NCBI GenBank assembly: GCA_009746045.1 | Contig: RPFO01000231.1 | Location: 1,872,840-1,936,839, forward strand | Direction: 5' to 3' | DNA length: 64,000 nucleotides | Origin: Mesostigma viride | Taxonomy: Eukaryota; Streptophyta; Mesostigmatophyceae; Mesostigmatales; Mesostigmataceae | Position numbers and translations under genes: made by a program | Notes under the pieces: generated by a model | What the model was told of the DNA's origin: nothing | What the model saw: only the letters and a program-made list of their open reading frames with translations | The model's database searches: none | Part shown: piece after piece, positions 9,346 through 33,187 of the stretch | How positions within the stretch are numbered: position 1 is the stretch's first letter | Layout of the letters: each line of letters starts with the position of its first letter

Positions 9346-12300
9346 ATGGAGACACTGAGGGCGTCCGCCCCCGGAGACGTGGATGGCAGCCCCATGCGGT
9401 TGCCGAGCCAGCAAGCAAAAATGCCTGTCATGCGCCTTCCATTCTCTCCCCTGCACAATGTGACCGACAGCCCGCCTTCCGGCGCAAAGAGCAAGTCGAA
9501 GACTCCCGCTGCCAGTTCCTCTGTACGCAATTCTGTCGACTTCAATGACGAGAACAGACTGCCCGTGCTTGTACAGGACCCCATTTCTCCAAAGGCCGCG
9601 AAGAGAACCAACAGCGGCATCCGCAAGTCCAGCAACACCTTGTTGCTGCAACAGAGTGTCAAGGTGAGTTCGCAATTCTGATGTGCCATTGCTGAGCAAA
9701 CTGCTGACTCATCGCTGAGCTGCACGCATATATCTCGTAGATCGCATTAATTTCCGCATTTGCGAAGCCACCCAAAGCACCTTGCGCCTTTCCACCTTGT
9801 TGAGAAGGATCGCGAACTTCCGCTTCATCACGCGTGAATGCGTACATTACTTTGCCTGCCTTCCATCGCGTGTCGGTTCGTGCATGCATCTTTTGCCTGC
9901 CTTCCAGAACTCCTTGTCAAACCTGGTAGCATCCGTGGACGGAGATAGCGGCGGCATGACCACTCTCAACGGCCTGGGCAAAGTCCTCTCCCATCGCCTC
10001 GTCACCTCCAAGGAAGGTATGTGGACGCTAACGCGCGTCCCCAACCGTGTACTCATTACAATTATATTGTCATGGTGAACCATTCCGCGGTCGCGGTGCT
10101 TTTTTCCGAATCCTGCACGGGGCATATTCCCCTTTGAGTGCGTTCGCCGTCCTCCATAACATTTTCAGCATATCATTTACAGCCGATATTAACTAATATC
10201 CCAGTACGGCAGGCTGTGCATCCCCAAGCTACAGCATTTCCCTTCATGGCCATCTTGGGTCGAAATATACCGGACTTTAAAATATCACTGGCAGTATCAC
10301 TGGCATTTGCAGGTAGCACTCAAACTACGTGCATTCTTGTTCACACTCGTGGCCTTGCGTGTCGTTTTATGAGCCAGATTTTAACTTGCCATGGACAATT
10401 AAACACTTGCACTACTTGATGACATATCCCCCCATGGGAGATAACGAGCAGTTTGACTTGATTCCTGGCTTAATGCTCTTTCCAGCTACCCCCCTGTACC
10501 TGGCCCATCTCTCCCTTCGCACATTCCTGCGAGCCCAACTGCTGGTACATTCTTTCTCTCTGCCGTGTTTCTGACCCATACCATCTCTGTCTCGCTCTTC
10601 AACTTTACTCTCAAAACTGACCTCGTCTACCTGGCCTATCACCCCCGTTTCTTGGCCAAGCCTACTTGTTGTAGGCCCCTTTACTAAGACCCTCTTCTAT
10701 GTCCATTTTGATATGCCCCTTATTCTTTCTCGTTGCCAACCGTCCCTTACCCACTTGCCCCCCCCCACCGCCCGTTCCCACGTGCTCCCCCCCTGTCCTT
10801 GCCCCACTTGTCCCCCTCTCCCCCACTCCCGCTTGCCCCTCTGAACCCCCAGCGCAACTGCTGGTGCAGCGGCTCGAGTGCGCCACCAGCCGGCTGAATG
10901 GCGAGGTGGTCGAGCTGCGCAAGAAGGAAGAGATGAGCGCGGCCGAGCTGCAGAGCCTGGGTTCGGCCACTAGCGGTGATGCGGACGTGGACCAGTTGGC
11001 GTCGCTGTCGGCGCAGGTGGAGGCGTACACGCGCGACATCGCCAGCAAGGACGCGCAGGTGGGTAACAGGGGTAAAGAAGGAAGAAAGAGCCTGTTTAGG
11101 AAGTAGAGAGGGGAGAAAGAGCCTGTTTAGGAGTTATAGAGGGTAGAGAGAGCCTGTTTAGGAAGAAGAGAGGGGGGGATCATGCATTGCTGGGGACAGT
11201 GCGATCAAGGACGCGCCGGTGGGCAGGAAGGGGTGCGTGGGATGGCAGATGGGGGTGTTTGTTGTTTTTTAGGGATTGGTACACCTGCAAGGGGCTTCAG
11301 GCTTACTGGGGATATTGCGAGCCGGACGCGCAGGTGGGTAAGTGGCACGTGGACGGGGAGGTAAGCCTAGTTGCTTATCCATAGGGAGGGACAGGTATAT
11401 CCATCGGTCACTAGCAAGGTCTCGCAGGTGAGAAGTGGGGGGAATGGGAAGAGCCTTTTCATCCCATAGGGGGCCCTCATACATGGCTGGTGACATTCCG
11501 AGCAAAGGACACCTTAGGGATGACAGGGATGACAGGGGGGAAGGGATACCCGAGTCATCCCCTGAACCACACGTGTGGAGCGGTTGCCTCGCGAATCGCT
11601 ACCATGGAACCCACTGGCCACTTAAGCTGCTGGGTGGTTGCCTTGTGAAGCTCTAGCATGGAACTCACAGGTCACTATACTGGTCGCTATCACTGTTGGG
11701 TGGTTGGCTTGTGAAGCTCTAGCATGGAACTCACAGGTCACTATACTGGTCACTATCACTGCTGGGTGGTTGCCTTGTGAAGCTCTAGCAGGCTCTGCTG
11801 CTGGCTAGTTTGTGTTGTGGGGGATACCATCCTGAAGGTTGCTCTCAAAGCAGCAGTCTTTTTGCCTGCAGCGCATCTCGTATACAACTATACCTGCGCT
11901 TGTATCTCAACATGTGGGATGCGAGAAACTTGTACTCGCATCCTCATGTGAGTGCATGGCAAGTCGCATATTCCAACAGGCAGGTCCCACCAGTATCCTC
12001 TCCCAAATCCCCTTTCCCCCACCCGCGCTCATCCAAGACTTAAATGCCTTTGATGGGTCACCCCCCCTCTCCGTCCCGTCCCACTCCCTCTCTCTCCCCT
12101 CCCGCCTCGACTCCCCCCCCCACCCACACCCACACCTTCAGATGGCGGCAATGCAGGCACAGATGCGTCGCCTGCAGGACCTTGTCTCCTTCATGGAGGT
12201 GGAGGTGGTCGCGCTGCAGGCGGCGTCTGACGGCCTGCGCCAAGAGAAGAGCGCGCACGAGGCGGCCGTGGGGCGTGCGGCAGAACTAGAGGAAGACCTG

Positions 12301-14098
12301 GAGCGCGTCACGGGTTTCCTGACCAAGGCGGAGCAGAAGCTGGCGTGCTCCGAGAAGGTACCTTTTGAATGGGTGGATGGGAGTAGTCTCCAATAAATTC
12401 AAGCGCATGCTTCCATTAAGTGGTCGTTGAGGGTTATGTGTGACAGGGACTGTCAAATGTCTCTATGGTAGCTGTCAAGCGGGCACAGACGCGTGCCTGC
12501 AGGCAGCAGGTGATGGTGGGAAGAACTGTGCTCATAGTATGTTTTAATGGGATACGATTATAACGGGATAGGACCGGTGAAGACGGGATAGGCCCCGTGG
12601 AGCACTCAACGCCACCGGTAGGTATGCTGAGGAGACAACTAGGGAGACTACTAGAACGAGGACAGGGCCGCACCTTTCTGTCTCCTCTGCAGCAGCAAAG
12701 GTCACTGGCCTGACCAGAACGGCTGCCTCCGCAAGCAGTGCGTGTGTTCACGGGGCCTAGAGCGAAACTAGCCCACAACGCGACGGAGGAGGGTGCAGGC
12801 GTGTGCCTACGCTTGTTGAGATTTCCGGCCAGCGCTGACAGAGATGCTCGGGACATAAAATGCAAGCGGTGGGGCATGTGTTTCGATTCGATGCATTGAT
12901 GACAGCTGGGGACCTTCTAGCCCTATTGGGTGGGAGATTCTAGCCCTATTGGGTGCCATCCTAGGGTGCTGGCTTCGGCCATCCTCCTGACTCACACCCA
13001 TCTTAATTTATCGTTGTTCTTAGATCCCCTCCGACTACCCCCCCCACACCCCCGCCCCCACCCCACACATACATTTCCCTTTCTGCTTCTTTTCTTCCCA
13101 AGACAACCTCCCTTCTTTCTGCTCCCTCGTTTTTCCGTGTCACCATCCCCCGCTTGCCGTCTTCCCTGCCCTCCGTTTCTATAAATAGCGATTCTGATCC
13201 GTGCCACCTTCCCATCCCATCGCCCCCCTTCCCTTTCGCCGCTCTCCCCATCCCGCCCCATCCCGCCTCCCCCCGCCCGCCAGCATCGCGAGGGCAGCGA
13301 GCGCGTCGTCTCTCTCTGCCTCCAAAAGATCCAGCGGCTGCGCGCCGAGCTCTCCTCCACCCAGGCCGCCGCCGCGACCGCGTCGGAGAAGATGCTCGTC
13401 TACGAGCTCATGGCCGAGCAGCTGCGCAAGGAAGGGGAGGCCAAAGGGGCCGAGCTGGCCGAGGAGATGCGCCACATGGCGGCTCAGCGCGAGCTGCTCA
13501 TGGCCGAGAACGAAATGCTCCGGAGGGAGCTGAGGGAGGCGGCCGCGCGCGCATCGGTGCAGCGGTCGGTGGAGTTTGGGACCCTGGAGACGCAACTCGC
13601 GAATCTCAGGTGCGCCCTGTTCGGGGAGGGTGCTATTGTTTAGCTAGCCAGGTACAGGGTAGGCATACAAGGGAAAGTATGATTGTTCAACGGCAAAGTT
13701 TGTTCGAGCGGTTTCTTTTGCTGTCGAACAATTTGTTATGCTCTCTGGAATCCAGGTTGTGTCGCCTTGCATAGCTGTTTGGATAGTCCCCTACGCCCGC
13801 TGAAAGGCCGCATGAAAAGCTCTCTGCATTGTTAGTCCCACAGCTGCTGCTGGGTGGACCAAACAGACATGACTCAGCGATGGCATCCTAGAAAGCCAGA
13901 GGTCCAAAAGACAATACCCCTTGTCTACCCCAACTCACCAAGTGCAAGGACCGTTAGAAAAGTAGCAGTAGCAGTAGCAGTAGCAGTAGCAGTAGCAGTA
14001 GCAGTAGCAGTAGCAGTAGCAGTAGCAGTAGCAGTAGCAGTAGCAGTAGCAGTAGCAGTAGCAGTAGCAGTAGCAGCAGCAGCAGCAGTAGCAGTAGC

Positions 14099-14130
<32 letters not shown>

Positions 14131-14312
14131 TAGCAGTAGCAGTAGCAGTAGCAGTAGCAGTAGCAGTAGCAGTAGCAGTAGCAGTAGCAGTAGCAGCAGT
14201 AGCAGTAGCAGTAGCAGTAGCAGTAGCAGTAGCAGTAGCAGTAGCAGTAGCAGTAGCAGTAGCAGTAGCAGTAGCAGTAGCAGTAGTAGTAAGAGTAGTA
14301 AGAGTATTAGTA

Positions 14313-14399
<87 letters not shown>

Positions 14400-15589
14400 G
14401 CAGCAGCAGCAGCACTAGTGCTAGCAGAGTAGTGGTGGTAGTAGTAGTAGTTGTTGTTGTACGTTACCATGCACGTGTTCATGCTCCCCAGCAGGCGGCA
14501 TGGCTTACCCGATCCCCACCATCACACGCACGCAACCCGCTCCCATCACACGCTTGCGGCGCTAACCACGACTCCCGACTCCCTTATCATTGCCAACAAA
14601 CGTCTGTTCCTCCTTCCTTCCCCCCCCCCTGCAGGGACCAGCTCTCCCACCGCACCCAGGCGGTGGACAGCCTGCGCTCGGAGCTGACCGCCAAGAGCGG
14701 CCAGCTGCGCGACGCGCAGGGCAAGGTGGAGGCCGCCAAGGCCGAGGTGGCACGCGCAGCCGCAGAGGACCTGGCGCAGGTGCAGGAGGCCATGGGAGCA
14801 CGCGTGGAGCGGCTGGAGGATGAGGCGCTGGCGCTGTCCAAGCAGGCGGCCGACAAGGAGGCGGCGCTGCAGGTGAGCGAGGGGGGGTAAACGTGCTGGT
14901 GTATGTCGGGTTTTAAATAACCCTCTAGTTGATTCCCACGTTCGTCCTGCTTGACAGGATTCACCTCCCTGACCTCTCCCCTGCTAGTCAAGTATTAACA
15001 ATAAATCATTCATCACAAATGCCAGCAAGGGAAATTTTCTCGGCAAGAAGGTGGGCTGTTGCCTAATGCTTCTTTTGTTCAACCTCCCTCCGTGGATAAC
15101 CCCTTCATCTTTGTCTCTCATCCCTTTCCATGCCACCTATCAGTTTACCGTCCCCTCGCCTTTTCTCCACCTTCTTGGCAGCTGTGGCCCGCCCAGTCCA
15201 TTTTCCTCTCTTTCTTGAAGCCTTGTTTCCATTCCATTCCCTGCCACTCCTTCACCCTCCCTTCTACCCCTCCCTTGCCCTTCATCAATCGACCCACGCA
15301 CCAGGCTGCGCTGAGCCGTTTGGAAGCCCTCCAGCTCGACATGGAGCAGTGGGCCGCCACGCAGGAAGAACAAGGGGCCGAGTTGGCCCGCCTGCGTGCC
15401 GAGGCCGCGTTGGCCGCTGAGTCTCGCAGCGATCTGCTTGCGCGGCTCGACGAGCGCGAAGGGGAGCTGCTCGAGGCCCGCTCGCTGGCGCTGGCCACCG
15501 ACAGAGAGCTGCGTGCGCTGGAAGTCAGCATCGCGGAGATGCAGGTGTGCACTTGTCTGTATGTGGGTGGGGGTGTGGGGGGTGGGGGT

Positions 15590-15646
<57 letters not shown>

Positions 15647-18600
15647 GTATGCAGAAGCGCTGGAAGTCAGCATTGCGGTGTGAGATGCAGGTGTGTACTT
15701 GTGTGCGGTGGAAGTGTGTGTTTGCATGTGTGGTGTAAATGTGGGTGTGGGTCCATATGCACGGGCACGGACTCATCATGCTTCTTATGTGCTGATCGAT
15801 AGCTTCGCAATCCCTGTTTATGGTTTGAGTTTGGGTTTTAGGGCCTAGCTTACAAAATGCTTTTGAGAATACTTAGTCCCGAAATGTATCTCCAGTAGCT
15901 TCCTTCCTCGTCTGGCCGATCCGTACTGCGTCGCGGCTGCACGGCAACATCCAGATGAGCATGAATGATGCAAATGCAATACTGCTATTTTGTTACTGCA
16001 TTCCCAAGTTACCTCCCTGTGTTCCCCTCCGCACATTCTAAGCACACCATGCTGGAGGCACCGTATGCTCTGCTGTGTTTGTCCTGGAACTCCTGTACGC
16101 TTGTTCTCCAAGCTCAAACCCACTCATTGCCCTCCCCTCTGGCACCCATAACCCACTCCGCCCACCGCAGAACGAGATCCAGAAGCACCACGACAAGGCT
16201 GCCGCGGCCGAGGAGGCCGTTGAGCAGCTGCGATCCGCGCTGGCCCGTAAGGAGGCGGCGGTGGCGCGGATGCAAGAAGATATTGCGGGCAAGGACCGCG
16301 TGGCGAAGGCCACAGAGGAGGCGATGAGCAAGAGCAAGGCCGCGCAGGTGAGCCTTGGCTACCGTTTAAACGCGTGGTATGGCCACAGGGGTGGGGACAT
16401 CTGGTTATGAGACCACGGAGGAGGAGATATGCAACAGCAAGGCGGCGCAGGTGAGAGGCCACAGCATCGCAGGGCAGGCACCCTCCGTTCTTACAAGATC
16501 AATACATACAACACCTAGTCACGCATATAATCGAGATGTTGGGGGCAAGCAGACGAGCGAGCGCAAGGTCAGAATGCGGCATAGCACACCGTGTAAGGAA
16601 GCCAATGCCTATTCAATAGAGCAGGACACAAATGCCTGATAGAATCACATGGTGGCGCAGGCCCCAGGTACGCGCCCACGTATTCGTCACCGTCTGCAAG
16701 TTTTCCCATTCCAGTCTCGAAACAATACTCACCGTCACTGGCCTTTCCACCCATGATGAATTCGCTGCTGACTTTCCTCCCCTGGTCCCCCCCCAACACC
16801 CCACCACCAACACCAAACCCACCACTACCACCACGTGTGCAGGAAAGCTCCCAACTCGCCGCCGACACTCTCCAGGGCAAGGTTGTGGAGATGGAGAGCA
16901 TGCTGGCATCTGTCAAGAGCAAGGCCAACGCAAAGGTGGGGCACCACAACGCTTGCTCCCTTGTGGGCGCCGCCCGTTTGTTTTTCGATGGGTGCCTTTC
17001 CTTCATTATTCGCGAGGCAGATGCACGGTGATTATGACGTATACCCCTCGCTTTCCTTTCAAATTTGACCCGCATCAGCTATGTAGAGTTCAAGGGCCTG
17101 GGTCCTGGGGTATTGCGTATCGTGTATCGGTTCTGGATTTAACATTTCACCTTTTCCCCTGCATGGGTCTTCCCCTGTTCACATGTGCCGTCTGCCAGGT
17201 TCGGCGCGCCCAGGACGCGCAGGCCGAGCTGCTCAAGCAGGTGATCACCCTGGGCATGCAGCTGGAGGAGAAGAACGCGCTGTTGGATGCGGCCATCGAC
17301 CAGGCCACCCAGGCGCACATGGCCGCTGGCGCGGGCCGGCTCAAGGCAGAGCTGGCGGGGGACAAGGCTGCCAAAGAGCAGGAGGAGCTCAAGGCGGAGA
17401 TCCAGCGGCTCACCGTCATGCAGTCCAGCATGCAGGTACGACTCAAGGTTGTGCCTACGGTTTTGGTAGATATTAGTCTAGTACTCCAAGGGCGGAGGTC
17501 CAGCAGCGTAGGGCTCGCCGTCATGCAGCCCAGCATGAAGGGGTACGATGGGTAGTTCTATACCACAACTACTTTGTGGCTGCATGGTTCCTGGGCTAGC
17601 TCCCTCCAAGTGGCGAGGTACCCTTTGCCACCGCCATGCAGACATGAATGCAGTTATATATGGAAGCTCATCAGGATCGCGTATCTTGGTTTTCCATAGG
17701 CCAGCCCAACATGTAGGACAAAGTCCTCCCTAATGCCTGCATGCACTTTTTTTTCGTCCTTATGGCTCTGAACTTGTTTCAAGGTCTTTTGGTCCAAATG
17801 GCATAAGGACCCTGGTTTATTTATCTCGCTCGCTCCTGCCTTGCGCTCACCTTGCCACGGCTGGCCCAAGGAAAGAACTCCTTCCTCGTCGTTCTGGTCC
17901 CCCCAGGGGCGCATGACACTATCTCGGGCTGGACACTATGCCGTGCTCACGTGCCTTGCTCAAATGTCGTACCGTCGCATGGCTCTGTGCGAAATGTCCT
18001 GACCCTCCCCCCACATGACGCTGCAAACGTCCCTTTCTTACTCTAACGTCTTTTGTTTGCCTTCTTGGGATCCTCCATCTCTCTCCTTCCCCCCCAGATG
18101 GCTCTGGACACCTCCAAGCGCCTGCTGACCACCACCGAGGAGGAAGCCGCGGCGGTCGAGAATGAGCTGCATGGGCGCATCGCCGAGCTGCAGGCTGAGT
18201 TAGCCTCCCAGAGACTTGCTGCGCAATCAGAGATGGCCACCCACAAGGCCGCCGCCGCGGCCGACAGGGAGCAGGCGGGTCAGCGGGAGGCGGTGCTGCT
18301 GGGTCGCACGGCCTCGCTCCAAGAGCGAGTGGTGGAGTTGGAGAACGAGCTGTGCAACCTGGGGCAGGAGTACGAGGCTGAGCAGGAATACGCGGGCAGC
18401 GTGGAGAGGGTGAGTGGTTTTTATCGATCAAGAGGAGGATAGTATGGGTCCATACGAGAATGAGGGTAAGGGGAAGTGTGAGGGCAATGAGTACGAGAAA
18501 GAGCAGGAGTATGAGGGCAGCGTGGAGAGGGTACGTCTTGGGACTGGTTTTATGTTGGTGATGAGGAGGACGACGAGGGTGAGGATGAGAGTACATGCGA

Positions 18601-21600
18601 GGGTAAGGATGATGAGGCAGAACAGCCGAGCATGAGTATGTGGGTAGGGTGGATGGAATGCGTTGCGGGTGGACTGGGCTTTGTGAGGACGACCCTTTGT
18701 CAAAGTTTAAAAAATCTTTGGGAGCGATTGGACTCACTAGTACAGGATAAGGGTGAGGATGAGCATGAATGGAAGCATAAGGTGATGCTTATGAGGAGGG
18801 GAAGGAGGAAGAGGAAAGGTTAGAGGATGGTGCTCGTGTTAATGGGAGGGAGAGTAAACCCCCATTCTGGCCCCACTACATCCGCACCCATATCGTGCAA
18901 GTTCTTGCAGATTGCACCAAGGATCCATACGGGATAGCGCCCCCTCCCCCCCCAGGTTTCCTGCGGGTCATACTTGGCACCTGTCCTCTGCTCACCGTGG
19001 CTCCCTCGCTCCCACTTAAGCCCCTTTTCAATTCATCACCCCACGGCTAACCCTTCTCCCATTTCATTCATCCTTCTCCCCCCCTTTCCCCTGTCCTCCT
19101 TTTCCCCTGTCCCCCGTCCCCACCCCATTCCCCCGTCTCTTCCTGCTTCCACCTTTCCCTCCCCTTTTCTGGTCTTCCACTTGATGCGGCCCCCTCTCCC
19201 CTTGCCCCCTTGCCCCCTTGCCCCCTTGCCCCCTTGCCCCCTTGCCCCCTTGCCCCCTTGCCCCCTTGCCCCCTTGCCCCCTTGCCCCCTTGCCCCCTTG
19301 CCCCCTTGCCCCCTTGCCCCCTTGCCCCCTTGCCCCCTTGCCCCCTTGCCCCCTTGCCCCCTTGCCCCCTTGCCCCATTTCCCCATTTCCCCATTTCCCC
19401 ATTTCCCCATTTCCCCATTTCCCCATTTCCCCCAGGAGCTAAGCGCCAGCGAGGCGGAGCGTTCTCGACTCGAGCTCTCCCTCAAGGACCGCAGCCGAGA
19501 GGCCTCGGAGGCGCGCGCCCACGCCGACATGCTGCGCGCCGACCTGTGCTCCCTCACCGCCCGCCAGCAGGACCTTGTCTCCCAGCTGTCCGCCTCCCAG
19601 CGCCGCGAAGAGTCCCTGGCGTCCGAGCTGGCGTCGCTGCAAGTGCGGGTCAGTGTGACGGAGGACAGAGCGGACAGCGCCGAGCTGGAGGTGGCAGCGC
19701 TCAAGACGGAGGTGGCGGACCTGGAGAAGCGTGTGTTCGAGGGGTTGCTGCTGAGGGGCGAGTTGGAGAAGAAGGCCAAGGAGCTGGCTGCGGCCGAGCG
19801 GGTCGTCCAGGTGCTGCGCGCCGGTACGTCTCGTGACATGTGGTAGCTGCTCTTTAGCCTTTGGGCCTGTGGGTGTTGGGCGTTCTGTCTGTACCAGGAT
19901 TGCACATCGCCGGTACGTCTGCCATAACGCGTGATGGAGGCACGTGGGGACGTGTGATGGCAGTAAGGATTGGTGGGGGGCTAGGGCGGGTGGGTCCTGC
20001 TGTGAGTACATCTGAATAAATCATCCCTGCCCGCATGATGCCTTTGATGAGTCGCTTCTCGCTTGGTGACAACTTGCAGTCATGAGATCACTTGAATTAT
20101 CCTCTGTAGTCTTCTTTTTGTTCCTTCTTTCTTGAAGGGGGGAGATCCAACGATGTATATCTGCCTTAGTTGTGGCTGTTCTTCATACACCTCTCCCGTC
20201 CCGAGCACCCTCATTTAACCTGCATTCCACCTTTCAACATTCCCACACAATGGATTTTTTTGGGAGCCTTTCTAGAGCCTCGTTTCTGCCTTCCAACCTT
20301 AAACCTCCTGTCTACCTTCTTCCCACATCCCTCCCCCCCCCCCCTTCCCCCCCCCCCCCATGCAGGCACTGCCGAGCAGGAGTCCAAGTGCGCCCAGCTC
20401 GAGCACACACTGGCCTCCGTCACCCGCGCCAAGGAAGCCAGCGACGCCAAGCTGGCGTCGCTTGACAGCCAGCTGCGCGAGGCGGGCGCGCTGCTGGACG
20501 TGAAGGAGGCGCGCACGACCGCGCTGCGCCACCTGCTGCAGGAGCGCGAGGGCCTGCGCGTGCGCGCCGAGACGGACGCCAGGGCGGCGGGGCTCCAGGT
20601 GCAAGGGCTGCTGCAGGCGCTCGTGGAGGCCGGCGCACGCCACTCGGAGGAGCTCATGGTGCGTTAATCCTGGCATGGTTGCATTGTGCCAAAGCTGGTA
20701 AGTGTAGTGTTTTGAGGAGGAGGTGGGGGAGGGATGGAAAGGGGAGCTACGCCGGATTGATTACCACTCAAAGGAGCCCATGGTGCGTGCGTGCTGGCAT
20801 ATCTGGCTGTGTTGGCATATCTGGCACGTGTGTTGGGTGGTGGTCTTCTTTATAATAGCGTGCATCACTAGGGGAAGTAAGGGGAGGTTCAACGTCTCCC
20901 ACGATGTCGAGGCGTTTGGATAGCATAGATTTACCCAGTGTCACTTATCTGGACAAGAGCACCTATCAATAACCGAGGATGAAACTGCGAAATGACCTAT
21001 GCCGACCGGGGTTCTCACTACCACCGTTTGCTTAGCAGCCTCTCCTCCAATCCCTCTCATTCTCTTTTGTTGGCTTACCCTGCATATTTTACTCCTGCAT
21101 ATCCTTACCCACCAACCCCCAGGCCGGCGTGGCCAAGCTGGAGCAGGCGCAGGCCGTGGCGGATGCCATGCGCGAGGACCTTGAGGACCGCGACGCCGAG
21201 CTTGCGTCCGTACGTGCTGAGCTGTGTGAGCTGAATGGTGCGCTGGAGGCCAAGGAGGCGTTCCTTGCACGGTACCGCGACACGGCGCGCCGCGTAGTGG
21301 ACGCTGTGAGGCAGCAGTGTGCGGGCGAGCTGGCCGACAAGCAGGCGGAGCTGGAGCGCGTGGGGGAGGTGAGTACGGGCAATAGCTGTCTGACATATGT
21401 GTCTGACATATGAGCGCTTAGATGACATCATGCTGCTAGTGTATTATGCACAGTATCCGACAAGCTGGGCTGACAAACAGGCAGAGCGGAAGGCGCGGGG
21501 GGAAGGTGGAGTGTAAGCGTACTGGTGTTCATAGACCTACTACTATGCACCTCCAACGACCATGTAACTCTGTATAGTAAAATATTTTCAGGTTTTTAGG

Positions 21601-24600
21601 CGAGTCTGCTAGGACAGGGCAGGGTCATGCTAGAAGAAGAGATCCATATTTTGCAGGTCTGTTGCCCCTCGATGAATCATATTGCTCCTGATATTGCAAC
21701 ACTCCTACGCACCCCAATACCACCACCTAGATCAATCACCTCCGCCACCCCTGAAATTCCACCTCCACCCCATTCCCCACCTCCGTTCTTACCCCTACTT
21801 CTACCTCCAACTCTACCCCCACCCCACATCAGGTGCTGGAGGCCACCCGATTGGAGATGGAGGACCAGGCCAACAGTGCGAGCGCGCGCGAACGCATACT
21901 GGCTGACACCGTCGAGGGCCTGCGTGCGGCCACCACTGACGCGGAGGCAGCGGCAGCCGGGTGGCAGCAGCAAGCAGTGGCGCTCAAGGAGCTGTTGGAT
22001 GCGACTGAGGAGACGTCGGCCGTGAAGGTGCGATGATTACTGCTTTGCAATAGAATTCCAACCACCAACAGGAGTGGTCGCCTTGGCTGAAGGTAAAAGT
22101 CCTTACCCAATCGTTAATGGTCCTAGTGATACGGGTACGGTATTTTATTTTGCAGGGATGCCCAAGGAAGCTGATAAAAGCGTCTTTGCACACTCGTGCA
22201 TCTGGCCTGCCCCTGTCCCGCCCGTTCGCCCGTTTACCCCATTTACCTCCCTCTTTATTTACCTGTATCTACCTCCCTCCGCCCGTCTATCATTCACCCC
22301 CATCCCAAGTGCATATTCCCTGGTGCACTTCGCCCATGCCCCATCCCATGGATGGGCCCTCCCTCCACCCCCCACCAAATCCCCTCCTTTGCCCTTTGCC
22401 AGGGCAGCTTTGCTCATTCCGGCTCCACCTGTCCTCACGTCCATCCCTACCCCCCACACTTTGTCATTCCCTTTCCTTTCACGTATTCCCTTCTTCGCCA
22501 GCGCGCCGACCTGGAGTCGGAGCTGCAAGCCGCCCGCGCCGCCATGTCCCACGCGCAGCTGTACGCACGCCGCACACGTGAGGAGATGAACGAGATCACT
22601 TTGGAGCTGTCCCAACTACAGGCCACCGCTGCGCTGACCGCTGCGGCCGCCGCCGAGCAGTCCTCCCGCCTTGAGGCTGCCGCTGCCACCCTCGCCCAGA
22701 GAGATGCCGCACTCGCCGAGCGCGAGGCGCAGATCCTGGACCGTGACAGGCTGATCGCGTCCGCGCGGGAACAGCTGGCGTCCGCGGAGGCTGACCTCGC
22801 CTCCCTCTCATGCCAGCTCAGCGCGCGTGAGGAGGAATCCGCGCGTGCCCATGCCGCCGTGGCCGAGCTGCACGAGAGGATCGCGTCCCTGGAAGCAGAG
22901 GCGGCGCGGCACGCAGAGACTGCTGAGTGCATCGAGGGGCTTGTCATGGGGCGCGACGCCATGATGGCGCTGTACGAGGACGCGAGCGCGAGGGCCGAGG
23001 CGCTGCAAGGGGAGGCGGAGAGGTTGAGGGCAGAGCTGAGGGAGAGGGAGGATGGGTGGAGGGTCAAGGTGGAGGACAAGGAGGAGGCGCTGGGCAAGAC
23101 GGAGGAGTTCTTGGGCCGGTGAGTGGCGGGGACGTGGTTGATGAAGAGGGCGGTCGGCTGAGGTTGGCAGTTGAATCTTATCGCAGTAGATAATAGAAAA
23201 CGGTATGACTTAAGCAACTGGTAGGGGTTTTCTGGGTTGTGCCCTTTGAGCCATTTCTTTTAGTAATTCTCCTTCCCCCACAGACAAGCACTGCGCACTA
23301 TGGGGCTATCCTGTGCCTCTCTCTCTCGTCACCCCTGCCTCCGTTTCGACACTGGCTCCCTGCCTCCCCTCCAGTCTCCTCAACCCGTTCTCCCTGCCTC
23401 TTCGCTGATGGTCTTTATCATCTTATTATTTATATAGTCTTTATCATCTTCCTGTTGCGACCGGGGAGCACGGGGTAATCCTCGCACCTCATCCTCCCAT
23501 TTGATCTGTTTAGGGTTTATCTGATCTCTAAACGCCATGTCTCGCCCCTCCCTGTCATCCCTTCTCATACCCACATCCCATTCCGCCACTGCCACCAGCT
23601 ACCAAGCGGTGACGGCGTCGGTGATCGCTGCCATTCGCGCGCAAGACGCCCGCGAGCTGGCGTCCGCCACGCTCGAGATCTCCTCCCTGCGCTCCTCCCT
23701 CGCGCGCGCAGAGGCGGAGGCCTCCTCCTCCTCCCTCGAGGTGTCCAGCCTCCGGTCGGCGATGGCCACGCTGGAGGCCTCCTTGGCCGAGTCCCACGCC
23801 GCGCTGCAACTGAGCGAGGCCCAGGGGGTTGCGATTTCCCAGGACCGAGCGGGTCTCGCCCAGCGCGTCGGTGCGCTCGCCGTCGCGGTCGAGGAGCGAC
23901 AGGCTCTGCTGGAGGGTGCTCGGGCTGAGTCAGCCCGCCTCGAGGCCCAGCTTGCGGAGTTGGTCGCCAGTGGGGAGGCCAGGGCGGAGGAGCTCGAGGC
24001 GACACAAAGGGCGTTGGAGGACGCAAGGGAATGCGTGGCTCACGGGGACGAGGAGGTCCGGTCACTGCGCACGCAGGTGTTGGAGATGGAGACCGCGTTC
24101 ACCGTCCTGTTGGCGGAGAGGGGCGCGGAGGAGGCTGGGCGGAAGGACGCGGAGGCCGCGCTGACAGATGCCAGGAGTACTTGTCTGGCGCTGGCGGGGA
24201 GGCTGGAAGACGCGCTGGCAACCGTGACGTCCCTGCGAGGTGAGCTCGCCGAGGCCAGGGCAGAGACGTCCAGGTGTCGCGACACCATGGGCCGGGAGAT
24301 CGAGTCGCTCCGTGGGGTGGTGGCGGCCAAGGAGGAGTTCCTGAGGGCGTTCCGTGAGACGAGCGCCCGCGTGGTCGCGGCCGTGAGGGCGCAAGACGCA
24401 GAGCAACTGGCGGCCGTCACCGCGGAGGCCGCCAGGTGGCAGGAGAGGATGAGGGAGACGACCAGAAAGGTGGTGCTTGCGGTGCGGGAGCAGGACGCGA
24501 GGGAGTTGGCGGCTGCGGTGACGGCAGTCAGAGACGAGGGCGCGAGGGAGCTTGCGCGGGTGAAAGCAGAAGGGGTGGCATCCCTGGACAAGGTGAAGGC

Positions 24601-27600
24601 GGAGGCGGAGCTGTGCCAGGAGAAGGTGAAGGAGACAGCGAGGGGTGTGGTGGCGGCGGTACGGGCGCAAGATGCCAGGGAGCTCGCGGTTGTCAAGGAG
24701 GAAGCGGCGCGCGCGCAGGAGAGGATGCGGGAGGTCTCCCGGAGGGTGGTTGAAGCTGTGAGGGCGCAGGATGCCAAAGAACTGGCAAACGTCAACAAAG
24801 AGCTGTCGGACGCCAGGGCAACCCTGGAGGGTCTCCGAGAGGAACTGGAGGCGGCAGCGGAGGCCGCGGTGCTGGCTTCTGCAGAGCGCGAGGGAATGAA
24901 GGCGGAGGTGGGTGCGATTCAGGCCCAGCTGGACAGCGCCTTGGCCGAGAATGACGTCATCCATGCCCGGCTGCAGGCGGTCAGGGTGGACCGAGAGAGG
25001 GTGGTCTCCCAGCTGTCATCGGTGATGGCCATGAACGAGCAGATGGAGTCTGCGATGGCGATCCTGGGACAGATGCTAGAGGAGTCCCGTGATGCATTGG
25101 CCCGTGAGGAAGCCCGTTCGGCGGAGCTGTCCACCCAGGTTGTCGGTCTGGAGTTCCGGGTGGGCCACCTGGAGACGGGGCGTGTCGAGCTTCTGGCGAA
25201 CGTCAACGAGCTCCAGAGGGGGATCGCCGAGAGGGACGCCATGTCGGATGCCATGAGGGGGGAGCTGGGCGTGGCGGCGGCCGAGCGGGCAGCCTTAGCG
25301 GCGCAGCTCGCGGTCGCCCGTGACGAGCTGGCGCTGTCAACGCGTGCGGCGGAGGTCGCGCACCAGGAGGTGGCGGCGCTGCGGCGCCAGATCGACGCCG
25401 ACAGGGCGTTCTTGGACAAGTACAAGGCGACGGCGACGGGAGTCATTGACGCGATCAAGGCACGGGCGGCGGGCGAGATTGCAGAGAGAGACGCGGTGCT
25501 CGAGGCCGTGCGCGCTGAGCTGGCATCCGTACGCGCCGCGGACGAGCGTGCGAGAGCCGGGGCCGAATCGGAGGTCGCGGAGCTCAGGGCGCGGAGGGAG
25601 GAGGCCGCGGCGCACGTCCTCGCGCTGCGCCGGGCGCTGGAGGAGCAAATGTCGGAAGCTGAGGCGCTTCGGATGGACCTCGCGGAAGCCAGCATCAAGG
25701 ACGGGGACAAGACGCTCACGATCGCAGTGCTGAGGGCCACGCTGGAGGAGAGGGAGGCCGCGGCGGAGGAGTTAAGCGAGGAGCTCGCGGGGGTAGAGGG
25801 CGCGTTGGAGGCGACGGAGAGGGCGGCCGAGGAGGGACGGGCGGCGGCGGCGGTGGCGGCGCGCAGGGCGGCCGACCGCGAGGCGGAGTTGATGGAGAGG
25901 TTGAGGGAGGCGGAGGGCGCGGCGGCGCTGGGGAGGGAGGAGGCGCGGGCGCTGCGCGAGGGGATGGATGCGATGGCCGGTGAGTGGCGGGGCGGTCGCC
26001 TTTTTCGCGTACTTGTGACCCGCTCATGCCTACTACCTTTACCAGGCCACGCGTTTGTCATACGGTCACAAAACATACAATCATGACAAATGCTTGTGTT
26101 GCCATACAGCATGTAGGTCTTACTACCTTACAGGTACTCCCATCGAACCATGCTATTCTGTGTGCACAACCTGGTGCAGCCACACAAACTTGTGTCATGG
26201 AGCCTCTCTTCTAAGCCCCTCCTCATGACCCTTCGTCCACTTCAAAAGCCATCTTCCAAGGCTCGACTGGGATGCAGTGACCGAAAGTCTTACCCCTCCT
26301 CGCTTCTCCCCTCCTCATCCTTGCTTCGTTCTCTTCTGGACTCCCCCCCCCCCTTCTGACCTGACTCTCCCCCGTCCACCCCGTCCACCCCCGCAGTGGT
26401 GGCCGCACGACGCAAGGATGTGACCCAGCGCCTTCTCTCCGCGCTGCGCGCGCAGTGCGCCACCGAGGTCGCCGCAGTGACGTCGCGCGCGGCGCAAGAC
26501 CAGGAGGCCGCCGCCCTCGCCCACGCGGCTGCCCTGTCAGCCATGGCCTCGGACCACGCGACCGCGCTGTCTTCCCTCGCTTCGGACCACGCGAGCGCCC
26601 TATCCGACCTGACCAATGACCACAAGGCGGCGATGTCTGCGCTGACCGCCGAGATGTCGGCAAAGGAGGCCGCGTCACGGTCCGCGCTGGAAGACCTGTG
26701 CTCCCAGCTGTGCGACGTTCTGGCCGTCGTCACGTCCGAGCGGGCGAGGGGCGACCGCCTCCAGGCAGAGGTGACGTGGCTCGCCGAGGAGGGGGAGAAG
26801 GCGGCAGCACGCGAGCGGGAGCTAAGGGAGCGCGCGCGCATGCGGGAGAGCACGATCGCCACGCTGGAGCTGAAGGTCGGCTTCTTGTCGGCGGCGATGC
26901 GGACAAACCGAGACACGCTCGAGCGCAAGGTGGGGGCGGGTGCATGGCTCGCCTTGTGGCAGTGCAATTAATTAAATATATAAAACAAATACTATTGTGG
27001 CTGTGCACTTGTGGTGATGATACTTGTTACATCGTCGTGCCTAGTACTGTTTCTGTCGATGGCGATGTATGGTGGGACAAGAGCGATGCCGACCAACCTC
27101 GGCACACAGAGCGCAAAGAGAGTTGGCTCTGCCTGCCAGTATGGTTCCTCATCGTCCTCCTTGGTCCTTCTAACGCTTGACCCTCTTACCTGGGGACGCT
27201 GTTGTGACCTCCTTGTGCACCCATTCGACTGACAATGACTAAAATATATATGCAGTTCAAGTTATTTACCTGTGAGATGTTTACATCATCCATCTTGGGT
27301 TTTCTCAACCTGATTGTATTGATGAGTGACTTTTTCCTATGTCCATCGAGCTGCTAAAAGCGTTGCACTAGATCTTAACCTTGCTTGTTTCTTGTTGGTT
27401 TGTTCCTTGACTTGTTTCTCTCATCGTTCATCCCCAGTCTATCGAGTCGTTCAAGGCGGTGCGCGAGCTGGCGGACGCGCAGGCGGAGCTCGCGGCGGCG
27501 CGCTCTCGTCTGGACCAGGCCGAGAGGCAGCGTGCCGAGGCGGAGGCGGCGCTGAGGGAGGAGCGGAGGGAAGCCGAGGCCGCGCGCGAGAGCGATCGCT

Positions 27601-30600
27601 TGCACGCGGAGCGGGTTGCAAGGGAGATGCAAGCGCTGAGGGAGGAGCTGGCAGCCAAGGCGGAGCGGTGCGCGCAGCTGGAGGGGAACGTGACCGAGCT
27701 GCGGGTGAGTGGGTCGGCAGCGCAGTGCCGCGCCTAAGACGGCCCTGAGGGCGAGTGTACTTTCAAGTCTGGTGGCAGAGCCCTTATCCAAGCGAGATAT
27801 TGTTTCACGGCTGCCCGTTCGCCTTCAACTTTTTTTTTGCGCCCACATATGGAGCTCATCTTGGCATTCTCTTCAATTTGGTTGTCCTCTTTCTGTCGCT
27901 GCTTCCCACCCTTCCCTCTGCTTGATGCGTCAGGTCGATGTCAATTTTCATCTCTGCTGGCATCTGCACTTGTTCCCTATTCTCGCACCTTGTTTCATGC
28001 GGCTGCCCACCTTTCTCTTTCTTCTTTACGTAACCATATTCATATTTTCCCCCATCATCCTGCCCCTGGGGGTTGTGGGTGAACCCTGGTTATGCCCCAA
28101 CAAACCCTCAGGCTCCGGGAAAGCCCTTTAAATTCTCTTAAACGGGCGCCTCTAAATGCGTTCCAAGCTTGTCTGTGGACTCTGGACCACCATTGGGGCA
28201 GCCTTACTGCATCCGCTATGCTTTTGCTGTGTCGAAGCTTTATTGTACCCACAGTGTTGCGCCCCGGCACCATGAGGCAGCGAGAGTCCTCTGTGGCCTG
28301 CCCACTTGAAGCAGTGAGAGAAGCTAGGGCGCCCTCCCTCCTCGTTGTGTATAGGGTCGAAGGTACCTTTATTGGTACCCACTTTTAATCTTGCCTTATT
28401 TTTTCCTCGATCCCCCCCCACGTTTCCTTTTATGCCGTTTTCCCCACCCGCATAGACGAAGTTCCAATTCTGCTGCCATATTTCTCATTTTGCTGTCCTC
28501 TTTTGTGTCGCTGTGCCCCCCCCTTTCCTCGTACCCATGCTTCTTTATGCTGATGCCTCCCGCCTCCCCTCTCATTCTCATCCTTGTCCTGCATGATCCT
28601 GCATCCCTTTGTCCTGCCTGTTTCTCTTAATCCCTTCAGACGGAGCTCCAGGTGGGCGCGGCCAAGAGCGAGGAGCTTGCGCGCAAGCTGGTGGAGCGTG
28701 AGGCAGAGCTGGCCGAGGCGGAGACCGCCTGGGCCGCGGTGGAGGAGTGCAAGTCCCTCAAAGCGCTGCTCGAGAAGGCACGCGCCGACTCGGCCGCGGC
28801 CACCGAGAGGCTGCTGCAGGCGGAGCAGCACCTGCAGTACGTGGCTGTGTGGTTGTGATGGTTACCAGTACATGGCGGCCCTTATAGTGAAGATCGTGAA
28901 GTTGCTGCAGGTGGAGCGGCACCTGCAGTACGTGGCTGTGTGGTTGTGATGGTTACTAGCACATGGCGGCCATTATAGTGAACATCGTCAAGCTGCTGCA
29001 GGCGGAGCGACACCTGCAGTGCGTGCATTCTTGAGGTTGTGACAGGGCATCTACTCAGTTCAGGCAGGGCTGTGGCCGGCAGTGCCAGCAGGAGTAAGGG
29101 GCCCAAAAGACCAGTTCTGTGGCTAAGAGTAGGTACAGAGGCTCATTTCGTGTGTTTCTTTGTAGAATGAGCCGCAGCATTCCACATTCTGCAATCTAGT
29201 TGATGCTTTGGCTGTGACATTTATTATTATCGTTATATTTAAACTATTGTTATTATTACGGGACACTTTTTCATCGCTTTCCCACCTCTTCCCTGGTGGC
29301 CCACCCCGCCCACCATCGACACCACCATTTCTACCCTATTACTGCAGCCAACAATAACGATAGTAACTCAGTTTTCCACCCTCTCACTACAACCTCTAAT
29401 CACTGCAGCCCTAAACTGTACCCACCACCCACTTACCACCCGCAGGCTGCGCAACGCCGAGATTGAGGCAGGCCTGGAGCGCGAGGCGACGCTCACTGCG
29501 GTGCTCGAGGCCAAGGACACCGAGGTGGGTGGGTGGGGCCACCCACCGGCGCGCGCCGATGAAGATTGCTTGAAGGATGAGGGGGATGATGTAAGCAAGG
29601 GGAGGGTGGGAGGCAGGCAGCACGTGTGCATGGATGTGTGAGGCAGGAAACGTTTACGTTTAAGGGTTTGATGAACATTCCAGGGGTGGCGGTTTAATAG
29701 ACCAACCGGCTACCTCCATCTGGTGCCCCTGTCATGTTAATAGAGATAAGGAGATCAGCAAAGTTACTAAGTGTCCCTCTGAGCTGTGCGGTGCCTCTTT
29801 CCTTACATGGAAGGGCCTGCGTGGCATTCGTAAATTCCTATTGTGTGACCAAGTATTTATGGCTTTCTGCAAGCTATCTGGCGTATTTCTCCGATGGGTG
29901 TATTTTAACCGCCCAATGACCACCACCCTTTCAATCACTCACTTATGCATTCATTTCCTTCATGCACTGCCGTGCCTCCATCTCATAATAAAAGTTTTTA
30001 TTTGAGACCAGCTCGCAGGCCCAGTGCGCCCAAAAAGACTTTCATTCGCTACTTTAAATATTGTGTACAGTCCATTCACGCCTTAAGTCGGGTTTGCTTA
30101 AGTTGTGTTCACGCCTTAAGTTGGGTCGAATAAGATTTTGGCATTCTTAGTTTAAAGTAGTTCACAGTATTTTTTAGTATCTTTAGTTCAAATTAGTAGA
30201 ATTTAGTAGAGTCATTCACGCCTTAAGTTGGGTTGACCCCTAAAAAATCTCGAACCCAACTTAAGGCGTGAATGACTGTACTCTCTACTTTGGATCTGTT
30301 CATGCTCTTGACTGCATTGGACCATGGACCGTTCGCACCCCCTGTTAGCTCGCAACTCCTCCCTGTCAAGTGTGAGGTCCAGCTCACGATGCTCCCTTTG
30401 CCTTTATTCCCTTATTTGGTTCTATTGCGACATTTATATCCCTAACCCATTTCCCTATCAGGTCCAGCGCGCGCGCTATGACGTGCAGCGCCTCTCAGGC
30501 CAGTTCAAAGTAAAAGAGACCATCAGCGCCGAGTCAATGACTGTGGCCGCCACCCTGCGCTCCGACCTGGAGCGCAAGGAGGCCACCCTGGCCAGCTATA

Positions 30601-31384
30601 AACAGGAGATGGCCTCCCTTCGCAAGGTCACCGAGGAGCTGCGAAGGAGGCTGGAGAGTGAGAAGGTGGTTGCCAGCACCCAGTGGAAGCCGGCCACCAA
30701 GGAGTTTGGCAAGAGCGGCATCAGCGGCGCCAAGGAGTGCAACAAAATCCCCAAATGCGTCATGGGGCTGCCCCTCATGAGTGCTGTCATCACCGATGGC
30801 GCACCGCTCCTGTCCGCGGTACGCAAAAGTCATCGTGCTTGCTTTGGGATTTTGTCGCGAAGCTTGCGGACCATGGTTTCATCGGGTTAGATTTACTACT
30901 AGCAGTATTTCACTGGGTCACTTTTAGACCACCTTGTGGGGTTGTGGTTACCTCTAGAGGGACGATCGTTTTGTTGGTGCTTTACTTGGTGTCCACCATG
31001 CTTATATAGTGTACCTGTAGGGCTCATCTAATTTTACGATCCACTGGTCAGGTGGAACTTTGGCTGGGTAAATTATTCGGCTTTTGGAAATAGATTACAT
31101 GCCTGTTGGCTCAAGGTTGTTATAGGTCGTCTTACATCCCTCTTACCTAATTCTCTACCAAGATCCGCAGCGCTTGCACTACTGACCCTGAATGTGCACT
31201 CATTTTCAGTTTCTCCTTACGCTTCTGCGCTTTTGTCTTTTCTTGGAATGCCTCGACCCTGTGATCTTCTTGGCACAAACAGACGGAGACGACCCCCACT
31301 AGGCCACAAGTGCCACCTGCGAAGCAGCGACCGAACGAAGGCCAGGGCCTGGGTTTCCTGGGGCGCCTGAGGCAGCTGCTATGA
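9346..31384 (+). CDS. Very long coiled-coil protein, 23 exons, family not recognised
   Basis: The start ATG 9346 follows an in-frame TAA; the stop is TGA 31382-31384. Exons: 9346-9663, 9908-10016, 10853-11058, 12142-12357, 13284-13609, 14635-14872, 15305-15544, 16171-16347, 16843-16935, 17199-17435, 18098-18409, 19436-19823, 20366-20658, 21123-21368, 21833-22027, 22502-23118, 23599-25979, 26397-26929, 27438-27704, 28640-28836, 29446-29524, 30462-30818, 31283-31384. All 22 introns are GT-AG with matching phases, and the sum is 8,127 nt (2,708 aa). The N-terminus (~140 aa) is Ser/Pro/Lys-rich and non-helical. The rest is Ala/Glu/Leu/Arg-rich heptad-type coiled coil. Exon 17 alone holds 2,381 nt. 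An internal motif of the form YR.T.R.VV.AVRAQDA.ELA recurs about eight times between 21270 and 26490. The tail is Pro-rich, ending GFLGRLRQLL. A structural, cytoskeletal or scaffold role is only inferred from composition. Confidence 0.85.
11081..11178 (+). repeat. Tandem repeat in intron 3, period about 33 bp
   Basis: Three to four diverged copies of a unit containing AGAGCCTGTTTAGGA lie just after the donor of exon 3. Confidence 0.7.
11201..11510 (+). repeat. Serial echoes of the exon 3 tail plus donor
   Basis: Exon 3 ends GCAAGGACGCGCAG|GTGGGTA. Related copies occur at 11201-11227 (TCAAGGACGCGCCGGTGGG), 11311-11340 (GAGCCGGACGCGCAGGTGGG), 11396-11432 (CTAGCAAGGTCTCGCAGGTG) and, weakly, 11493-11510. 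Three of the four retain a GT donor-like junction at the matching position. Confidence 0.7.
11630..11795 (+). repeat. Tandem repeat in intron 3, period about 66 bp
   Basis: Two and a half copies of a unit containing GGTTGCCTTGTGAAGCTCTA (one copy GGTTGGC) and CTCACAGGTCACTATACTGG. It is intronic with no coding content. Confidence 0.75.
13961..14405 (+). repeat. GTAGCA hexanucleotide array passing into AGT and TTG arrays
   Basis: It fills most of intron 5 (13610-14634). Units change from GTAGCA with CAG interruptions to AGT to TTG. The long poly-VA, poly-L, poly-T and poly-V reading frames here are artefacts of the repeat. Confidence 0.95.
15583..15644 (+). repeat. Poly-G run in intron 7
   Basis: An almost pure G tract of about 55-60 bases follows shortly after the donor of exon 7 (15544). 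It is followed at 15655-15700 by an echo of the exon 7 tail (GCTGGAAGTCAGCATTGCGG ... GATGCAGGTGTG). Confidence 0.9.
18486..18536 (+). repeat. Echo of exon 11 tail plus donor
   Basis: Exon 11 ends GGGCAGCGTGGAGAG|G|GTGAGT. The copy 120 bases downstream has GAGTATGAGGGCAGCGTGGA followed by GAGGGTACGT, so it keeps about 45 bases of exon plus a donor-like site. Confidence 0.8.
19198..19434 (+). repeat. 8-bp minisatellite forming the polypyrimidine tract of exon 12's acceptor
   Basis: About 22 units of CCCCTTGC-type sequence are followed by about seven units of CCCCATTT. The last runs directly into the acceptor CCCCAG of exon 12 (19436). The minus-strand repeats read as Gly/Lys-rich frames, which are artefacts. 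Confidence 0.95.
20763..20800 (+). repeat. Echo of exon 13 tail plus donor
   Basis: Exon 13 ends CACTCGGAGGAGCTCATG|GTGCGT and is followed by a CTGGCAT. About 110 bases later CACTCAAAGGAGCCCATGGT is followed by GCGTGCGTGCTGGCAT, so exon tail, donor and intron start are all copied. Confidence 0.8.
28170..28388 (+). mobile_element. Dispersed repeat related to LINE 3' UTRs, in intron 19
   Basis: The segment contains a CGAAGCTTTATTGTACCCACA block shared with the LINE relic at 2395-2690. It continues into a block (GCAGTGAGAGAAGCTAGGGC) shared in inverted orientation with 32445-32600. It has no coding content and is probably a 5'-truncated LINE 3' end or a dependent non-autonomous element. Confidence 0.55.
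28899..29026 (+). repeat. Two echoes of exon 20 tail plus donor
   Basis: Exon 20 ends GCTGCAGGCGGAGCAGCACCTGCA|GTACGT. Near-copies occur with a period of about 90 bases at 28902-28960 and 28991-29026. The first echo also repeats about 40 bases of the following intron (GTGGCTGTGTGGTTGTGATG). Confidence 0.9.
30068..30278. mobile_element. Tc1/mariner-type MITE in intron 21
   Basis: Terminal inverted repeats begin CAGTC.ATTCACGCCTTAAG and are bounded by TA at 30066-30067 and 30279-30280. A 25-bp perfect inverted repeat sits at 30210-30234 / 30253-30277, and the CACGCCTTAAGT core occurs four times in all. There is no transposase frame. TA duplication and CAGT ends are typical of Tc1/mariner-related elements. 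Confidence 0.7.
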
Positions 31385-33010: not shown

Positions 33011-33187
33011 GGGAATACAGCAGCAGTAGTGTAGAATAGTTAGACAGTGGCCTTGTACATGCCCGCCTACTACAGGCACTATACCAGCTGAGGCCTAGCC
33101 TTTTTAGTCATGTACATGTGTGCCTATGATGGGCCACCCTCCAGATGATGCCTAGTTTTATTTAATTATGCAGTGCCCATGCAGGGA

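What the first reader, a model, noticed from the sequence alone, without database searches (positions are those of the whole stretch)
9346..31384. Introns carry 'echoes' of the preceding exon's 3' end together with its splice donor
After exons 3, 7, 8, 10, 11, 12, 13, 14, 15 (weak), 18 and 20, the intron holds one to four diverged copies of the last 20-50 exon bases, the donor and often the first intron bases. Examples: 11201-11432, 15655-15700, 16411-16456, 17501-17547, 18486-18536, 19901-19920, 20763-20800, 21457-21510, 27081-27120, 28902-29026. Copies sit 60-300 bases past the true donor and are graded in decay. I noticed only one weak exon-start-like copy (intron 4, about 12483-12510), so the bias is toward the donor side. 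Inference: repeated tandem duplication across exon-intron boundaries lengthens introns and seeds decoy donors that could give alternative exon ends. I know of no named phenomenon that matches this.
Basis: seen in the sequence. Interest (0 to 1): 0.88.

Follow-up and report, generated by a model that had tools for sequence, protein, structure and literature searches.

The report
Introns echo preceding exon ends
In the green alga Mesostigma viride, about a third of the introns examined contain worn copies of the end of the exon just before them, splice signal included, apparently left by repeated local duplication that the cell tolerates at the start of introns but mostly not at their end.

Summary
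The gene is the Mesostigma viride model Mv16023. In 10 of its 22 introns the last exon bases plus donor match their own intron better than 200 of 200 shuffles and all 21 other introns; exon 15 is not supported. It is not confined to this gene: adding seven 10-kb kinesin stretches on other contigs and a few neighbouring predicted genes, 22 of 65 exon tails are echoed in the following intron, against 4 of 66 exon heads in the preceding intron and 0 of 55 mid-exon pieces. The youngest copies are plain tandem duplications: a 70-base unit spanning the donor repeats at 97%. Similar duplications lie inside introns. They show no peak at the donor (9.3, 11.7, 9.4% of bases in the first three 100-nt bins, then mostly less) but fall to 1.9% in the last 100 nt before the acceptor, a drop like the tail:head ratio. 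Echoes decay like unconstrained DNA and keep no frame; the published protein uses none. Best reading: pervasive local tandem duplication lengthens introns; donor-crossing events are silent because the first donor wins, acceptor-crossing ones are mostly removed. Strong decoy donors are a by-product. Their use needs RNA-seq.

The parts
9346..31384 (+). Gene Mv16023 of Mesostigma viride, 23 exons, 2708-aa coiled-coil-like protein in my model (2730 aa published)
11059..12141 (+). Intron 3: echoes of exon 3 tail (11035-11066) at 11195-11223, 11299-11341 and 11408-11430, each with a GT donor (11219, 11334, 11428)
15657..15705 (+). Intron 7: echo of exon 7 tail and donor (15515-15559), echo donor at 15691
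16410..16455 (+). Intron 8: echo of exon 8 tail and donor (16307-16352), echo donor at 16451
17491..17656 (+). Intron 10: echoes of exon 10 tail (17393-17441) at 17491-17548 (donor 17543) and 17629-17656 (donor lost)
18482..18653 (+). Intron 11: echo of exon 11 tail and intron start (18362-18468) at 18482-18593 (donor 18531); a second copy 18625-18653 without donor
19894..19920 (+). Intron 12: short echo of exon 12 end and donor (19807-19831), donor 19913
20764..20831 (+). Intron 13: echo of exon 13 tail, donor and intron start (20640-20705), donor 20783
21463..21508 (+). Intron 14: echo of exon 14 tail and donor (21329-21371), donor 21506 (weak)
27083..27140 (+). Intron 18: echo of exon 18 tail (26894-26928); donor lost (GA)
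28810..29042 (+). Exon 20 end and intron 20: 91-bp tandem array of about 2.4 copies spanning the donor (28836|28837); echo donors at 28928 and 29019
12479..12503 (+). Intron 4: copy of the START of exon 4 (12153-12178) in the intron after it; not a donor echo
10532..10549 (+). Intron 2: weak echo of the start of exon 3 (10851-10868); the only exon-head echo of this gene at score 26
11072..11175 (+). Intron 3: 31-bp tandem array lying wholly inside the intron, the same kind of event away from the boundary

Best explanation
Mesostigma introns undergo frequent local tandem duplication with units of roughly 30-140 bp. When a unit happens to span a 5' splice site, the tail of the exon, the donor and the start of the intron are copied some tens to hundreds of bases downstream. 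The first donor continues to be used, so the mRNA is unchanged, the intron is longer, and the copy decays as neutral intron sequence: hence graded echoes. A unit spanning a 3' splice site duplicates the pyrimidine tract and AG, is likely to alter splicing, and is mostly removed by selection, so exon starts are rarely echoed. The echo donors are by-products that can act as decoys. Shown here: tandem arrays spanning donors, neutral-like decay, presence in several unrelated genes, scarcity of duplications near acceptors. Inferred: first-donor use (the published model of one gene uses no echo) and selection as the cause of the scarcity.
For: Own-intron match in 10 of 22 introns against shuffles and other introns. 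22 of 65 tails, 4 of 66 heads, 0 of 55 mid-exon pieces; 0.1% of 921 cross-intron comparisons; Fisher p = 6e-5; kinesins alone 10 of 32 against 1 of 33, p = 0.003. Young head-to-tail arrays crossing donors: L030_3399 unit 70 (-23 to +47, 97%), L034_3195 offset 68 (93%), L033_4331 offset 97 (93%), Mv intron 20 offset 91 (86%). Of 42 non-redundant local duplications in 56 introns with flanking exon, 18 span the donor, 1 the acceptor, 21 lie inside the intron, 2 start in the exon. The intron part is also copied at nominal p of 0.05 or less in introns 7, 10, 11, 13 and 20 (first copy), uncorrected for 13 tests. With exons removed, 26 duplications in 65 introns, periods 55-180; 9.3% of unmasked bases in the first 100 nt after the donor, 1.9% in the last 100 nt before the acceptor, a fivefold drop like 4:22. 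Local shuffles of the gene give 0 or 1 hit against 24 real (20 shuffles). Neutral-like decay: exon-part identity 521 of 596; GT intact in 18 of 22 best copies; 4 of 22 shifts divisible by three; exon-echo mismatches 11, 15 and 23% at codon positions 1, 2 and 3 over 15 copies, as expected if the exon is constrained and the echo is not. The published protein uses no echo donor.
Against: The intron part of the unit is not recognisable in introns 8, 12, 14 and 18, two copies of intron 3 and the second copy of intron 20; some of these could be donor-only insertions. The exon part rarely exceeds 50 nt: 17 of 68, 11 of 68, 4 of 67, 1 of 67, 0 of 65 windows at 0, 10, 20, 30, 40 nt from the donor, shorter than uniform breakpoints of 90-nt units would predict. 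Duplications are somewhat commoner in the first 300 nt of introns (9-12%) than at 300-700 nt (3-5.5%), though by relative position the sixth tenth is as rich as the first (12.8 and 12.1%) and one long array weighs on the far bins. The 11 neighbouring C1713 introns show no asymmetry (2 of 11 tails, 2 of 11 heads). Outside Mv16023 the exon ends come from my own gene finder; its retrained form broke Mv16023 itself into several pieces. No second species was available.
Confidence: 0.77

Rival explanations
1. Donor-targeted copying: a process tied to the donor (for example transcription- or splicing-coupled breaks, or templated repair) copies the exon tail plus donor and inserts it downstream.
For: Exon part rarely above 50 nt; several copies stop within 10 nt of the donor with no recognisable intron part; strong tail:head asymmetry; duplications somewhat commoner in the first 300 nt of introns than at 300-700 nt.
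Against: The youngest copies carry the whole unit head to tail; the first 100 nt after the donor are no richer in duplications than the next 200; 4 of 26 intron-only duplications start at +1, about what random placement gives (my estimate, about 3).
Confidence: 0.14
2. Echoes are maintained because they work, as alternative exon ends or poison donors that tune expression.
For: All 11 echo donors scored (of 15 copies in this gene) are among the strongest 0.1-5.7% of 829 intronic GTs, a set that includes them, by a matrix made from the 22 true donors.
Against: Donor bases in echoes are kept no better than exon bases (20 and 19 of 22 against 521 of 596); only 4 of 22 shifts are multiples of three; the published protein uses none.
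Confidence: 0.06
3. Chance similarity, low-complexity sequence or assembly artefact.
For: Introns are rich in simple repeats; my own earlier tests were inflated by masked letters matching each other.
Against: Shuffle, cross-intron and mid-exon controls; most copies are diverged, so not duplicates of assembly (inference); the corrected test holds.
Confidence: 0.01

Closest known systems
Tandem genomic duplication crossing an intron-exon boundary (potato RdRp gene; Ma, Lan and Niu 2016, PMC4974935; first of five parts read: abstract, introduction, start of methods)
   Same: A tandem duplication crosses a splice boundary and duplicates exon and intron sequence with its signals.
   Different: There it crosses the boundary of intron 1 and exon 2 (the acceptor side) and makes a new intron; here it crosses the donor, makes no new intron, and recurs in about a third of the introns examined.
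Rogers-type intron gain by duplication of an AGGT-containing exon segment (described in PMC4974935, and in passages of PMC2891723 seen)
   Same: Local tandem duplication supplying splice motifs.
   Different: That model makes the duplicated exon segment into the intron, with its AG as acceptor (placement inferred from the model); here copies lie 47-428 nt inside existing introns and carry a donor.
Intron sliding through nearby cryptic or tandem splice sites (Drosophila, PMC2891723, passages seen)
   Same: Extra splice sites next to the true one could later move an exon end.
   Different: Position pairs there are under 32 nt apart; here echo donors lie 47-428 nt away and no move was seen.
Ordinary short tandem duplication as a main source of short insertions (recalled, not read here)
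   Same: The same mutation type and size range.
   Different: Nothing I read describes the donor-sided exon echo it leaves in introns.

Membership tests
Tandem duplication spanning a 5' splice site | Copies lie head to tail with a fixed period that includes both exon and intron sequence | tested here: met
   Met for the young arrays L030_3399, L034_3195, L033_4331 and intron 20; older copies only partly recognisable
Tandem duplication spanning a 5' splice site | Copies are local and unique, not members of a dispersed family | tested here: inconclusive
   Checked for intron 3 only: of the listed matches to window 11000-11800, those elsewhere in the genome fall in 11566-11799 (66-bp repeat), none in the exon 3 tail or its echoes; the list was cut. 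A second such search did not complete
Intron gain by AGGT exon duplication | The intron is itself the duplicated exon segment, ending in the copied exon tail at the acceptor | tested here: not met
   Echo donors lie 47-428 nt after the donor in introns of 464-1997 nt (22 best copies); heads are rarely echoed
Introner elements | Near-identical introns in many genes (recalled; abstract in the listing) | tested here: not met
   Exon tails do not match other introns: 0.1% of 921 comparisons; 0 of 21 other introns reach the own-intron score in each of the 10 positive introns. Whole introns were not compared genome-wide
Functional alternative 5' splice sites | Splicing at the echo donor | not testable with these tools
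   No RNA-seq held; the published protein model uses none

The most novel reading that the evidence does not exclude
In Mesostigma the region at the 5' splice site has its own duplication process that copies about 20-50 exon bases plus the donor into the intron, so that introns grow from their 5' end and steadily acquire full-strength decoy donors, some of which are spliced and supply new exon ends.
Probability: 0.1. Interest if true: 0.85.

Novelty: new variant of a known kind. Interest (0 to 1): 0.6.

Why it matters
If the rate seen here holds over the genome, it carries many natural experiments in which two nearly identical 5' splice sites, with the same exon context, compete about a hundred bases apart, at all ages. 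With RNA-seq that tests directly whether the first donor wins, how fast decoys lose strength, and how introns lengthen. It also dates intron growth: each echo is a datable insertion because the exon preserves the original sequence.

Tried and rejected
Rfam and tRNA scans of the window gave nothing. Pfam on whole frames of 49-64 kb (three minus frames and one plus frame; the other two plus frames were not tried) gave only two weak matches, below Pfam's cut-offs. Protein searches (3 of 3 used): residues 1-330 of a 954-aa fragment of the gene found nothing; the full length found only its own published model; the third identified the organism. Literature (10 of 10 searches): on the phenomenon, 34 and 37 on Mesostigma, 32 on a wrong guess (Cymbomonas). 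Two of them returned no paper; of the papers listed, none by its title or the shown start of its abstract is about donor-side exon echoes. That holds only for the open-licence library, those terms and the rows shown (for example 12 of 25 and 12 of 16). Early echo counts let masked N match N (one alignment shows it); one search replaces them. Chance, dispersed repeats (intron 3 only), introners and AGGT intron gain were considered and set aside as in the table.
Full report
WHAT THE WINDOW IS. A protein encoded at 39096-40541 (minus strand) matches proteins named jgi/Mesvir1 at up to 99%, and the gene of the finding is that set's model Mesvir1/13895/Mv16023-RA.2. That Mesvir1 stands for Mesostigma viride is my reading of the name; the assembly searched as the window's own has 439.9 Mb and the published Mesostigma viride genome 441.8 Mb (PMC6947507, passages seen). 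My 23-exon reading gives 2708 aa without internal stop and equals the published 2730-aa protein except for a 66-nt, in-frame longer exon 21. The window is G000:C1713:1872840-1936839. The genome paper reports a mean intron length of 1142 bp and says that repetitive elements make up 30.1% of intron space.

IS IT ONLY THIS GENE. A family search of the assembly gave 129 kinesin exon matches. I took seven 10-kb stretches on seven other contigs, choosing those with many exon matches close together, before seeing any echo in them. A small gene finder trained on Mv16023 recovers 21 of its 23 exons exactly (on its own training gene); it was retrained with the kinesins, after which it broke Mv16023 into several pieces in a longer context, so for Mv16023 I used the checked exons. 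The first counts let masked letters match each other, so I repeated the test with that fixed. Result at score 26 or more: tails in the own downstream intron, 22 of 65 (Mv16023 10 of 22, kinesins 10 of 32, neighbouring C1713 genes 2 of 11); heads in the own upstream intron, 4 of 66 (1 of 22, 1 of 33, 2 of 11); mid-exon pieces, 0 of 55; tails against other introns, 0.1% of 921. Tail against head: p = 6e-5 overall, 0.004 in Mv16023, 0.003 in the kinesins, 1.0 in the C1713 set. Predicted introns were left out if either exon had a coding score under 10 or if the stretch held N; tests were left out for exons under 50 nt.

WHAT IT IS. The youngest cases are head-to-tail duplications. In L030 a 70-base unit running from 23 bases before the donor to 47 after it is repeated at 97%; in L034 a unit that I read by eye as 34 bases crosses the donor several times (found at offset 68, 93%); L033 has a 97-base and intron 20 of Mv16023 a 91-base unit. 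In older cases the exon part is still clear and the intron part is fading: nominal p of 0.05 or less against shuffles in introns 7, 10, 11, 13 and 20 (first copy), 0.07 for one copy in intron 3, and nothing recognisable in introns 8, 12, 14 and 18, two copies of intron 3 and the second copy of intron 20 (13 tests, uncorrected). That is roughly what is expected when one of the two exon copies is held by selection while both intron copies drift. Mismatches between exon and echo are 11, 15 and 23% at codon positions 1, 2 and 3 over 15 copies, which fits a constrained exon and an unconstrained echo.

WHY DONORS. Of 42 non-redundant local duplications in 56 introns with flanking exon sequence, 18 span the donor, 1 the acceptor, 21 lie inside the intron and 2 start in the exon. 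Donor-spanning ones are easier to see because the exon copy is constrained, so I also compared introns alone, exons removed: 26 non-redundant duplications in 65 introns, periods 55-180. By 100-nt bins from the donor they cover 9.3, 11.7, 9.4, 5.5, 3.2, 3.9, 4.8 and 8.5% of unmasked bases; by bins from the acceptor 1.9, 4.2, 8.8, 11.0, 11.7 and 11.9%. By tenths of the intron the values run 12.1, 11.2, 6.9, 6.9, 8.4, 12.8, 11.3, 9.5, 6.6, 4.1%. So there is a mild richness of the first 300 nt but no peak at the donor, and a clear trough at the acceptor, whose depth against the donor side (about fivefold) is like the 4 heads to 22 tails. The simplest cause is selection: a duplicated donor is harmless if the first donor is used, while a duplicated tract and AG would often change the mRNA. 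This step is inference.

DO THE ECHOES DO ANYTHING. By a matrix from the 22 true donors, all 11 echo donors scored in this gene (of 15 copies; the weak or lost ones were not scored) are among the top 0.1-5.7% of 829 intronic GTs. But they decay like the rest: in the best copy of each of the 22 positive introns GT is intact in 18, positions +1 and +2 are kept in 20 and 19 against 87% for exon bases, and only 4 shifts are multiples of three. In Mv16023, 11 of 13 boundary-reaching copies lie behind an in-frame stop and the other two shift the frame. The published model uses none. They are decoys by sequence; use is untested.

WHAT REMAINS UNEXPLAINED. The exon part of echoes hardly ever exceeds 50 nt: 17 of 68, 11 of 68, 4 of 67, 1 of 67 and 0 of 65 windows at 0, 10, 20, 30 and 40 nt from the donor. 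Short units in the young arrays explain part of this; removal of copies long enough to be recognised as exons may explain the rest (inference).

NOVELTY. Boundary-crossing tandem duplication is described as a case of intron gain (PMC4974935, first part read) and nearby extra splice sites as a cause of intron sliding (PMC2891723, passages seen). My searches listed nothing on a recurrent donor-side exon echo, within an open-licence library and the rows shown only. I therefore call it a new variant of a known kind.

Noticed in passing
window 11566-11799 (intron 3): A 66-bp repeat in intron 3 belongs to a family dispersed over many contigs, often in arrays (159 matches reported for the query, list cut).
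   Followed up: partly
window 23599-25979 (exon 17): Exon 17 itself holds repeats at spacings of 99, 177 and 276 bases (all multiples of three), so local duplication has also shaped the coiled-coil-like protein.
   Followed up: no
window 29525-29590: The published model ends exon 21 66 nt later, in frame, at a GTAAGC donor; by eye this is not an echo, and it may be a real alternative exon end.
   Followed up: partly
window 15565-15644, 13961-14451, 19198-19433: Long simple repeats inside introns: 80 bases of nearly pure G in intron 7, about 490 bases of AGTAGC-like repeat in intron 5, about 29 copies of an 8-base C-rich unit in intron 11.
   Followed up: no
window 30065-30280 (intron 21): Several copies of TTCACGCCTTAAGTTGGG and, by eye, an inverted copy near 30250-30280, possibly a small inverted-repeat element.
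   Followed up: no
window 44478-48370: Long open frame without a Pfam match, overlapped at its end by a frame with a phage-integrase match (PF00589), suggesting a DIRS-like retrotransposon (label recalled).
   Followed up: no
window 33156-33815 and 39096-40541 (minus): Reverse-transcriptase match (PF00078; LINE-like is recalled) and a protein with 48 listed relatives in the Mesvir1 set, several of them carrying unrelated Pfam domains as if fused in gene models.
   Followed up: no
window 1465-2178: Weak match to the Hint module (PF01079, 24.7 bits, below Pfam's cut-off of 29.7).
   Followed up: no
L030 (G000:C2189:665000-674999), intron after the exon ending at 1622 of the minus strand: An array at offset 76, 99% identity, that I read by eye as a 38-bp unit repeated several times well inside the intron: the same kind of array without the donor.
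   Followed up: partly
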